Assembly (NCBI RefSeq): GCF_004634195.1
Contig: NZ_SKBP01000005.1
Span: 186,001 to 250,000 of the forward strand
Reading direction: 5' to 3'
Source of the DNA: Flavobacterium salilacus subsp. salilacus
Lineage (GTDB): Bacteria; Bacteroidota; Bacteroidia; Flavobacteriales; Flavobacteriaceae
DNA: 64,000 nucleotides
The stretch's first letter is position 1; each line of letters begins with the position of its first letter. Shown here piece by piece: positions 25,030 to 41,642 of the stretch. The position numbers were made by a program, and so were the translations under genes. The notes under the pieces are model-generated. The model was not told the DNA's origin. It did no database searches and saw nothing but the letters and a program-made list of their open reading frames with translations.

Positions 25030-26115
25030 ATGGAACAATTTATTGTATCAGCCCGAAAATATCGCCCGCAAACCTTTAAGGATGTTGTGGGGCAGCAGGC
25101 TATTACCAATACATTACTCAATGCCATAGCAAACAACCACTTGGCGCAGGCTTTATTATTTACAGGTCCGCGTGGTGTGGGCAAAACAACCTGTGCGCGC
25201 ATCCTGGCACGAAAAATAAATCAGGAAGGCTATGATGACCCGAATGAGGATTTTGCCTTTAATGTATTTGAACTCGATGCAGCTTCAAACAACTCGGTAG
25301 ATGATATTCGTAACCTTATCGACCAGGTACGTATCCCTCCGCAAACAGGAAAATACAAAGTATATATTATAGATGAGGTACACATGTTATCTCAGGCAGC
25401 ATTTAATGCTTTCCTGAAAACACTGGAAGAACCGCCAAGGCATGCCATATTTATACTGGCCACTACCGAGAAGCACAAAATAATACCTACCATACTGTCG
25501 CGTTGTCAAATATTTGATTTTAAGCGAATAACTGTTAAAGATGCCAAAGCGTATCTTGCGGAAGTAGCTACCAATCAGGGGATTACTTTTGAAGACGATG
25601 CACTGCATATTATAGCCCAAAAAGCAGATGGTGCCATGCGCGATGCGCTGTCGATATTTGACCGAGTAGTAAGCTATTGCGGAAATAACCTTACCCGACA
25701 GGCAGTAACGGAAAACCTGAATGTACTGGATTTTGAATATTATGTTAAAGTAACTGACTTACTGTTAGACAACAATATACCCGAACTGTTATTAGCTTAT
25801 AATGATATACTTGCCAAGGGTTTCGACGGACACCATTTTGTAGCGGGGCTTGCCTCGCATTTCAGGGATTTATTAGTATGTAAAAACCCTGCAACACTGG
25901 TATTACTCGAAGCGGGCGAAGCAGCACAGGCACTGTATGGTGCACAAGCTCAAAAAGCCGGTCAGCATTTTTTGCTGGAAGGTATAGCTATTGCTAATGA
26001 TTGTGACTTAAAATATAAAAGCAGCCAAAACCAACGGCTTCTGGTCGAGCTTTGCCTTATGCAGCTTGCCTCTATCAACTTTGATGGAGAAAAAAAAAAG
26101 CTGAACAATTTATAA
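25030..26115 (+). CDS. dnaX: DNA polymerase III gamma subunit (zero-frame product of dnaX)
   Basis: 361 residues, the clamp-loader ATPase. Walker A GPRGVGKTTCAR near residue 45, DEVHMLSQAAFNAFLKTLEEPP, and sensor/SRC motif TILSRCQIF are all present. The usual four-cysteine zinc module after Walker A is absent; the sequence runs straight from ARKINQ to NEDFAFNVFELDAASNN. The frame ends at TAA 26113-26115, five codons after a run of ten A (26090-26099). The tau-specific sequence continues in the -1 frame, so this gene likely makes both gamma and tau by frameshifting. Start ATG at 25030 matches the conserved MEQFIVSARKYRPQTF. Confidence 0.92.
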   Translation: MEQFIVSARKYRPQTFKDVVGQQAITNTLLNAIANNHLAQALLFTGPRGVGKTTCARILARKINQEGYDDPNEDFAFNVFELDAASNNSVDDIRNLIDQVRIPPQTGKYKVYIIDEVHMLSQAAFNAFLKTLEEPPRHAIFILATTEKHKIIPTILSRCQIFDFKRITVKDAKAYLAEVATNQGITFEDDALHIIAQKADGAMRDALSIFDRVVSYCGNNLTRQAVTENLNVLDFEYYVKVTDLLLDNNIPELLLAYNDILAKGFDGHHFVAGLASHFRDLLVCKNPATLVLLEAGEAAQALYGAQAQKAGQHFLLEGIAIANDCDLKYKSSQNQRLLVELCLMQLASINFDGEKKKLNNL

Positions 26116-26762
26116 TTCCACCTGATTATTTTAAAAATCCTACTGCTCCAAAAGTTGTCAATACAACTAATGCAGCAGAAACAAATGCCCCTGTAATACA
26201 GGAAAAACCCGCAGCCACTACCCCAGCCGCTGCTGTGCAACAACCTGAACCTGTAAAACAGCCTGTTATACAAAAACAGGAAGATGACGGCAAGCCAAAA
26301 GTTTCGGCATTTTCGTTATCGAGCATTAAACAGAAACGGGAACTCGCCGAAAGCCAAAAAGCAGAACAAAAAAGTCATGATGAACTGCCAAAAGAGCCTT
26401 TCAGCGAAACGGATATGCTGCTGATGTGGAATAAATTTGCACAACGCCTTAGTGATAGCGGTCAGAAAATTATGGCTACCTATATGCAAATTAACGATCC
26501 TGTTCTCGAAAAAGATGGTGTCACCATAAAGCTGGAATTGCCTAATGAAGGTTCTAAAATAGACTTTGATAACAATAAACTGGAGTTATTGGGCTATATG
26601 CGCGGTAAGCTGCACAATCACGATATTGTTATAGAAACCCATGTAAACGAAACTGTTGCCAAGAAACACGCTTTTACACCACAGGAAAAATTTGAGCGAC
26701 TAAAAGCGATTAATCCTTTGATGGAATTATTGCGTACAACTTTTGATTTAGATATAGGATAA
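26097..26762 (+). CDS. dnaX: tau-specific C-terminal extension of dnaX, -1 frame
   Basis: From the A run the -1 frame reads KAEQFIIPPDYFKNPTAPK, a Pro/Ala/Gln-rich linker (VIQEKPAATTPAAAVQQPEPV), then a folded C-terminal domain (LLMWNKFAQRLSDSGQK, IVIETHVNETVAKKHAFTPQEKFE, NPLMELLRTTFDLDIG) as expected for the tau part that contacts polymerase III alpha. There is no start codon at the expected position, which fits production only by frameshift from 25030. Fused with residues 1-356 it gives about 577 residues, a normal DnaX length. A run-length sequencing error (true A11) is the alternative. Confidence 0.8.
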   Translation, partial: KAEQFIIPPDYFKNPTAPKVVNTTNAAETNAPVIQEKPAATTPAAAVQQPEPVKQPVIQKQEDDGKPKVSAFSLSSIKQKRELAESQKAEQKSHDELPKEPFSETDMLLMWNKFAQRLSDSGQKIMATYMQINDPVLEKDGVTIKLELPNEGSKIDFDNNKLELLGYMRGKLHNHDIVIETHVNETVAKKHAFTPQEKFERLKAINPLMELLRTTFDLDIG

Positions 26763-40913: not shown

Positions 40914-41642
40914 ATGAGATATTTTAGAATTCAATCCAGTATTAATGAGAAACATATGGGGAAAATTCCCCAAGTGAAAGAAGTTATTTATAATGGAGAT
41001 GTAGAAGCTCATAACTTTGTGGATAGAGTTTATTATACTAAAGTTGATTTTGAACCTGTTGTTGCTAACCCGGTCTTACACCCTAAAGCTATACTTACAG
41101 ATTTAATAGCTCCATTTGGTATGGGTTCAACCTTTACTGTCTTAATTAGTGGGAAATTAAAACTCATTTTGGAACAGTATAGAGATGATGGTATGCAGTT
41201 TTTTCAATGTAGTGTATTTCAGAATGGTATTGAGTACAACGATTTCTGGCTATTGAATATGTATATTGCAAATAATGAATATATTAATTATAGTGGTAGT
41301 GAAATAATTCTTTGGAAGAAAAAAAAAGAAGAACCGGGGAAAGTACCTGAAATTATTAACATTTCAGATATTGATAACTTTAATGAAAGAATAGAGGAAG
41401 CTAGAACTAATAGAGAGATACTACACGTTAAGAAAATTTCTCTGAAAAAGGATATAAAAGAAGATTTTTTTATTCTTAGATATATAGAAGGAGGGGCTGG
41501 TTATTTTGTTTCTGAAAAATTAAAAAAAGAAATGGAAGATGCCGGTTGTACGGGTATTGAATTTCAATCCAGCGAGTTATCATATCACGAATGGGTAAAA
41601 AGAGACGGACCTAGAGATGAGGTTTACGGTAGGTCTTGGTAG
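40914..41642 (+). CDS. Putative immunity protein 1 for the AHH toxin
   Basis: 242 residues, no signal peptide, 5 bases after the toxin stop. Begins MRYFRIQSSINEKHMGKI; C-terminal signature VSEKLKKEMEDAGCTGIEF. The C-terminal pattern resembles Imm11 (DUF1629)/Imm43-type immunity proteins, a resemblance from memory only. Paralogous to the next gene along its whole length (shared KVDFEP and VSEKLKKE-EDAGCTGIEF). Expected cytoplasmic, binding and blocking the nuclease. Confidence 0.7.
   Translation: MRYFRIQSSINEKHMGKIPQVKEVIYNGDVEAHNFVDRVYYTKVDFEPVVANPVLHPKAILTDLIAPFGMGSTFTVLISGKLKLILEQYRDDGMQFFQCSVFQNGIEYNDFWLLNMYIANNEYINYSGSEIILWKKKKEEPGKVPEIINISDIDNFNERIEEARTNREILHVKKISLKKDIKEDFFILRYIEGGAGYFVSEKLKKEMEDAGCTGIEFQSSELSYHEWVKRDGPRDEVYGRSW

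What the first reader, a model, noticed from the sequence alone, without database searches (positions are those of the whole stretch)
26084..26115. dnaX split at a run of ten A: gamma in frame, tau only by slippage
The zero frame reads ...EKKKLNNL and stops at 26113, five codons after A10 (26090-26099). The tau-like C-terminal domain continues at once in the -1 frame. A slippery A run before a nearby zero-frame stop is the known E. coli and Thermus dnaX solution. There is no clear downstream stem-loop, so transcriptional slippage, as in Thermus, seems more likely than a ribosomal shift. Equally, a true A11 would give one continuous tau.
Basis: partly seen in the sequence, partly recalled or inferred. 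Interest (0 to 1): 0.65.

Follow-up and report, generated by a model that had tools for sequence, protein, structure and literature searches.

The report
Conserved A10 slippage site in dnaX
A Flavobacterium gene for a DNA-replication clamp loader makes its short form by ordinary reading and most likely needs the copying enzyme to stutter at ten As to make its long form; relatives across the phylum often keep the same run of As but swap which form is the default.

Summary
Window 26090-26099 is A10; the gamma frame (25030-26115, 361 aa) stops at 26113 and the tau part continues in the -1 frame to 26762. It is not a sequencing slip: of 59 genomes of the genus read (window included) all 59 have exactly A10 and 58 the same split; one is fused. 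A9 or longer sits here in 215 of 228 loci read from genus, family, order and phylum samples, fused and split alike. In fused genes a slip ends at once and gives gamma; in split genes a slip gives tau. The two forms change places 13 to 29 times on a gamma tree, depending on how weak branches and lone tips are treated. Flavobacterium has no downstream stem-loop; a few relatives need a +1 shift; an otherwise rare Ile codon closes the second wrong frame. These favour RNA-polymerase slippage. Three of 48 relatives read in another family have a short A6G site plus a strong hairpin, as in E. coli. Against: the window also holds A_AAA_AAG in frame, and its genome has only tRNA-Lys(UUU). Two-ORF A10 dnaX was reported in 2013; I found no report of the repeated flips or the mechanism swap.

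The parts
25030..26115 (+). dnaX zero-frame ORF = gamma, 361 aa, 40.3 kDa
26090..26099 (+). A10 slippery run (proposed RNA-polymerase slippage site)
   Evidence: A10 in 59 of 59 genomes of the genus read
26094..26100 (+). A_AAA_AAG heptamer in the zero frame (possible ribosomal -1 site)
   Evidence: sequence
26113..26115 (+). zero-frame gamma stop TAA, lying on tau-frame codons ATA ATT
26102..26104 (+). +1-frame stop TGA, closing the third frame
   Evidence: sequence; +1 frame closed within 8 codons in 98% of 58 split genes of the genus set
26085..26762 (+). -1 frame ORF: tau-specific C-terminal part (joins gamma at the A run)

Best explanation
This is a programmed gamma/tau switch of the DNA polymerase III clamp-loader gene dnaX in a Flavobacterium. 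Faithful A10 mRNA is read to the zero-frame stop at 26113 and gives gamma (shown by sequence). RNA polymerase slips on A10 and makes mRNAs of varied A number; those with A11 (or A8, A14) join gamma to the -1 ORF and give tau (inferred). mRNAs with A9 or A12 fall into the +1 frame and stop at 26102, again giving a gamma-sized product (inferred). The same site exists in many relatives across the phylum; single-base indels in or beside the run exchange which product is the unshifted one, while both products presumably stay available (inferred).
For: Run length: A10 in 59 of 59 genus genomes read, A9 or more in 215 of 228 loci, although a ribosomal -1 slip needs only A6G. Synonymous choice: interior Lys codons of the block are AAA in 386 of 386 against 74-86% elsewhere in gamma; the Glu codon before it is GAA in 59 of 59 (genus) and 55 of 56 (family set) against 82% and 74%. 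Three-frame design: both non-tau frames closed within 8 codons in 82 of 91 fused and 110 of 124 split genes (53 of 66 split without the genus set), against about 25% of codon positions inside gamma. In family fused genes the first Ile codon within 12 codons of the run is ATA in 35 of the 38 that have one (background 22%); the ATA-ATx pair carries the zero-frame gamma stop in 51 of 58 split genus genes. Direction: 8 of 125 split loci need +1, six of them with the tau frame confirmed by tblastn, plus L237 (A9). No downstream structure: mean z 0.15 over 58 genus genes, window z -0.74. Contrast: three relatives with A6G have hairpins of -19.9 to -26.5 kcal/mol, z -2.8 to -7.3. Tau is kept: tau-part pN/pS 0.25 to the nearest relative, median 0.49 over 58; ATG within 20 codons of the run in the -1 frame in 1 of 58. 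Bacteroidia ribosomes are reported not to recognise Shine-Dalgarno sequences (PMC9976891, start of abstract in a search listing).
Against: No RNA or protein data. The zero frame holds A_AAA_AAG in 56 of 58 split genus genes, and the genome has only tRNA-Lys(UUU), two copies among 46 tRNA genes, the state linked to ribosomal slippage in E. coli. The excess of -1 over +1 split genes fits a ribosomal -1 shift as well as A insertion, and seven of the nine +1 split tips on the tree stand alone, so some may be base errors. Outside the family the ATA choice is weaker: 12 of 23 fused genes, background 20%. Split genes of the order and phylum set have a mean downstream z of -0.49, with 14% below -2 against 2% in the control, so some of them may use structure; one Flavobacterium of 20 reached -3.46 in a best-of-12 scan. 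Three other ORFs of 269 to 535 codons in this genome carry a sense A10. L107 is split with no A run, unexplained.
Confidence: 0.77

Rival explanations
1. Ribosomal -1 frameshifting at A_AAA_AAG makes tau, with or without a share of polymerase slippage.
For: Heptamer in frame in 56 of 58 split genus genes; only tRNA-Lys(UUU); relatives L269, L270, L401 look like heptamer plus hairpin users.
Against: No hairpin signal in Flavobacterium; no usable Shine-Dalgarno stimulator expected in Bacteroidia (PMC9976891, abstract start); the run is kept at A10 and not at A6G; two genus genes have AAT as the last codon; +1 split relatives; closure of the second wrong frame.
Confidence: 0.17
2. Sequencing or assembly error: the true run is A11 (or A8) and tau is one continuous frame.
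For: Homopolymers are error-prone; one genus genome (L049) and several near relatives (L186, L221, L229, L231) are fused.
Against: A10 split in 58 of 59 genus genomes read, including one-contig assemblies such as G010, G036 and G042; the fused near relatives reach frame by a base beside the run while still A10.
Confidence: 0.02
3. The gene is truly split into two proteins: gamma and a separately started tau C-terminal protein.
For: The -1 ORF has a first start codon, GTG at 26235, giving 175 aa.
Against: No conserved start near the junction: ATG within 20 codons of the run in 1 of 58, GTG/TTG in 5 of 58; tau-frame sequence directly after the run is partly conserved in eight aligned loci.
Confidence: 0.02
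4. Decay: tau has been lost in this lineage and only gamma matters.
For: The unshifted product is gamma alone.
Against: The tau part has pN/pS of 0.69 or less in all 58 comparisons and runs to a stop in 57 of 58 genus loci compared with the window.
Confidence: 0.02

Closest known systems
Thermus thermophilus dnaX (transcriptional slippage at A9; as told in PMC1088944 and PMC5009743, passages read)
   Same: A run in dnaX, two products, stops near the run in the other frames
   Different: In Thermus tau is the unshifted product and slippage gives gamma; here gamma is unshifted and slippage would give tau. The run is A10, not A9.
Two-ORF dnaX genes of Antonov et al. 2013 (PMC3711429, passages read)
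   Same: dnaX in two ORFs with a -1 frameshift at the DNA level, nine of 17 with A10, polymerase slippage proposed
   Different: Their A10 species are in a supplement not held, so whether Flavobacterium was among them is unknown to me; the passages read do not describe the fused/split exchange among relatives.
Escherichia coli dnaX (ribosomal -1 frameshift at A_AAA_AAG; PMC5009743 passages)
   Same: Same heptamer in the zero frame, one tRNA-Lys type, two products
   Different: No hairpin and no usable Shine-Dalgarno stimulator expected here; longer A run; reversed roles of the products.
Chlorobium phaeobacteroides dnaX (A7 in PMC3711429; named in PMC5009743 as a reversed candidate; passages read)
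   Same: tau from the shift, gamma from the zero frame
   Different: A7, with potential E. coli-like stimulatory signals according to the review (its authors' unpublished data); here A10 without them.

Membership tests
Thermus-type transcriptional-slippage dnaX | A run of 9 or more in the sense strand of dnaX at the gamma/tau border | tested here: met
   A10 at 26090-26099
Thermus-type transcriptional-slippage dnaX | Nearby stops in both frames that do not give tau | tested here: met
   Zero-frame TAA 26113, +1-frame TGA 26102
Thermus-type transcriptional-slippage dnaX | tau is the unshifted product | tested here: not met
   tau lies in the -1 frame; fused relatives do meet it
Thermus-type transcriptional-slippage dnaX | mRNA heterogeneous in A number | not testable with these tools
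   No RNA data
E. coli-type ribosomal frameshift dnaX | A_AAA_AAG in the zero frame | tested here: met
   26094-26100
E. coli-type ribosomal frameshift dnaX | Downstream stem-loop at a short spacing | tested here: not met
   Window z -0.74, 43 of 200 shuffles fold as well; 58 genus genes mean z 0.15
E. coli-type ribosomal frameshift dnaX | Upstream Shine-Dalgarno-like stimulator | tested here: inconclusive
   GGAG at 26086-26089 is only 4 nt from the heptamer and overlaps the Gly-Glu codons; Bacteroidia ribosomes reported not to recognise SD (PMC9976891, abstract start)
E. coli-type ribosomal frameshift dnaX | tRNA-Lys(UUU) only | tested here: met
   Two tRNA-Lys, both UUU, among 46 tRNA genes
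Two-ORF dnaX fs-genes (Antonov 2013) | gamma ORF and tau ORF with a -1 shift at a poly-A run | tested here: met

The most novel reading that the evidence does not exclude
The dnaX slip site of Bacteroidota is a phylum-wide three-frame cassette. Since slippage supplies both products whichever frame tau is in, single-base indels at the run are nearly neutral, so the default product has flipped between tau and gamma at least a dozen times. In one family the run shrank to A6G and gained a hairpin in a few members, swapping polymerase slippage for ribosomal frameshifting at the same site.
Probability: 0.62. Interest if true: 0.66.

Novelty: new member of a known kind. Interest (0 to 1): 0.5.

Why it matters
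The gamma to tau ratio shapes the replicase, and how gamma arises is known in only a few bacteria. Here one gene keeps its slip site over much of a phylum while the default product changes and, in three relatives, the machine that slips seems to change from RNA polymerase to ribosome. That gives a natural series for testing how easily two recoding mechanisms replace each other. It also means that automatic annotation may call many of these dnaX genes short or broken (inference; annotation was not checked).

Tried and rejected
Sequencing error as the cause of the split: rejected on 58 of 59 genus genomes read. Independent start of a tau C-terminal protein: rejected. A conserved downstream structure: not found in the genus or family sets (mean z 0.15, -0.24 and -0.12). 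It is not excluded elsewhere: order and phylum split set mean z -0.49, 14% below -2 (control 2%); family f5 13 loci mean -1.17, lowest -2.93, and f7 long-run split 9 loci mean -1.14; best-of-12 scan -5.8 for L157 and -3.46 for one of 20 Flavobacterium. Thermus-like two-tRNA-Lys argument: not met here. Pfam gave nothing for the tau part; NCBIfam did.

Caveats. I chose which family, order and phylum loci to fetch, with split genes favoured, so 117 to 97 is no estimate of frequency; the order and phylum set also holds some genomes of the genus and family (L130-L141). The codon null uses positions inside gamma, of another composition than the linker. The 386 of 386 Lys count depends on choosing the longest A run near the gamma end. 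For L270 the script took an A8 downstream of the real A6G site, so its frame counts are off. Six of 228 loci were unresolved; frame-closure counts also leave out loci with runs under A8. For L294 and L295 the +1 tau frame rests on an open frame alone. The tree is a quick LG+G4 tree of 182 rows: 29 changes; hard polytomies 31 or 32; soft lower bounds 28, 24, 19 at SH-aLRT 80, 90, 95; 18, 17, 13 after dropping lone tips. An earlier count said 59 of 60 split; the right figure is 58 of 59 read.

Full report
What is there. The window lies in a Flavobacterium genome (3.01 Mb, 17 contigs; the closest named gamma found is that of F. beibuense, 94% identical). The dnaX zero frame runs 25030-26115 and encodes 361 aa. 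A10 occupies 26090-26099. The zero frame reads GAA AAA AAA AAG CTG AAC AAT TTA TAA; the -1 frame is open from 26085 to 26762 and reads on as KKKAEQFIIPPDYF. The two frames overlap for 31 bases (26085-26115), and the A run fills a third of them. NCBIfam PRK14971 is covered by the two pieces in order, though neither alone reaches its cut-off.

It is not an error. A search of 61 genomes of the genus (window included) found dnaX in 60; G031 had only distant matches. I read 59; G050, whose match ends near a contig end, was not fetched. All 59 have exactly A10 in the same phase; 58 have tau in the -1 frame with the gamma stop directly after the run or up to four codons later, and one (L049) is fused. 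Among 80 loci from a collection with organism names, 70 are split by -1, 9 fused and 1 split by +1; some of these are the same organisms (L195 and L049 lie on a contig of the same length).

The run is older than the split. In a family sample (140 genomes, 136 with dnaX) 23 genomes outside the genus have short open frames not explained by contig ends; most others have long ones. The fused genes that I read hold the same A10: GGA GAA AAA AAA AAT AGC and the like. Order and phylum samples (119 and 148 genomes, dnaX in 109 and 146) gave further loci. Of 228 loci read in one frame analysis, 215 have A9 or longer; 97 are fused, 117 split by -1, 8 split by +1 and 6 unresolved. I chose which loci to fetch, so these are not frequencies. 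Some phylum-level loci lack the run: L306, L307, L310 and L311 have A2 to A4, L283 and L309 A7.

Both wrong frames are closed. In family fused genes (n 42) the -1 frame stops within 3 codons in 98% (34% of gamma positions) and the +1 frame within 8 codons in 98% (49%); in the order and phylum fused set (n 48) 79% and 83% (30% and 41%). Overall both non-tau frames close within 8 codons in 82 of 91 fused and 110 of 124 split genes, against about 25%. In fused genes the commonest source of the +1 stop is an ATA codon followed by ATT, ATA or ATC (35 cases among the 20 commonest pairs listed). ATA is the first Ile codon after the run in 35 of 38 family fused genes that have one within 12 codons, against 22% of Ile codons; in the order and phylum set it is 12 of 23, against 20%. 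The same ATA-ATx pair carries the zero-frame gamma stop in 51 of 58 split genus genes. Closing the second wrong frame has no evident use for a pure -1 ribosomal shift. It has one if mRNAs differ in A number, which is how Thermus dnaX is described (PMC1088944 and PMC5009743, passages read).

The nucleotides themselves are selected. Interior Lys codons of the block are AAA in 386 of 386, against 74-86% AAA elsewhere; the Glu codon before it is GAA in 59 of 59 genus and 55 of 56 family cases, against 82% and 74%. The third base of that GAA lies outside the heptamer needed by a ribosome. The Lys count leans on how the run was picked.

Polarity flips. On a tree of 182 gamma N-terminal parts, fused and split change places at least 29 times (shuffled labels: mean 60.4, least 51). 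Treating weak branches as soft gives at least 28, 24 or 19 (SH-aLRT 80, 90, 95); dropping lone tips, which could be errors, leaves 18, 17 or 13. An alignment of eight loci shows changes of one base in or next to the run. Atkins et al. [quoted passage not shown]

Which machine slips. For RNA polymerase: the run length; the eight +1 splits plus L237 (tau frame confirmed by tblastn in six of the eight; seven of nine +1 tips stand alone on the tree); the closed second frame; and the lack of structure (58 genus genes, mean z 0.15; window z -0.74). Bacteroidia ribosomes are reported not to recognise Shine-Dalgarno sequences (PMC9976891, start of abstract in the listing), so the E. coli upstream stimulator is not expected to work. 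For the ribosome: A_AAA_AAG in frame in 56 of 58 split genus genes (the other two read AAT) and tRNA-Lys(UUU) only. A natural contrast helps. In family f7 of the same order, 3 of 48 genomes read (L269, L270, L401) have CCA AAA AAG followed at once by a stop, and a hairpin shortly after it of -20.3, -26.5 and -19.9 kcal/mol, z -2.95, -7.34 and -2.77; the other 45 have A10 or A11. So where the run is short the hairpin is there; in Flavobacterium, where it is long, it is not. The contrast is not clean everywhere: f5 (13 loci, mean z -1.17) and f7 long-run split genes (9 loci, mean -1.14) are in between, and the order and phylum split set has 14% of loci below z -2 against 2% in its control. I hold polymerase slippage for the window at 0.77.

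Tau is kept. The tau-specific part has pN/pS 0.25 to the nearest relative, median 0.49 and at most 0.69 over 58 comparisons with synonymous sites near saturation (gamma median 0.11); 57 of 58 reach a stop within the held sequence. No conserved start codon lies near the junction. A separate protein or decay is unlikely.

What is known. Antonov et al. 2013 (PMC3711429, passages read) reported 17 two-ORF dnaX genes from 12 genera, nine with A10, as a new type, and proposed transcriptional slippage; the species with A10 are in a supplement not held. The kind is therefore known. I found no report of the phylum-wide site, the repeated flips or the mechanism swap in the listings; the library holds open-licence papers only, and most listed papers were not opened.

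Limits. No RNA or protein evidence. Genome-wide, A10 or longer occurs at 15 places (21 hits, merged by me); besides dnaX three ORFs of 269, 270 and 535 codons hold it on the sense strand, so the genome tolerates such runs. L107 is split without an A run and is unexplained.

Noticed in passing
L269, L270, L401 (family f7 of the order): dnaX split at CCA AAA AAG followed at once by a stop, with a strong hairpin shortly downstream: apparently an E. coli-style ribosomal frameshift with reversed roles.
   Followed up: partly
L107 (family sample): dnaX is split (GTG GAA AAG TAA) with tau in the -1 frame but no A run and no evident slip site.
   Followed up: no
L294, L295 (600 kb genomes of family f16): Reduced genomes carry GAA AAA AAA AAA TGA at the gamma end with the +1 frame open for 130-133 codons.
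   Followed up: no
L331, L332, L328 (own genome): Three ORFs of 535, 269 and 270 codons carry an A10 run on the sense strand; not tested for recoding.
   Followed up: no
L375:101-199 (own genome C7): ARAGORN reports a tRNA of unclear type with a four-base anticodon (tatt).
   Followed up: no
window 41319-41327: A9 inside a 242-codon ORF, 104 codons before its stop; not examined further.
   Followed up: no
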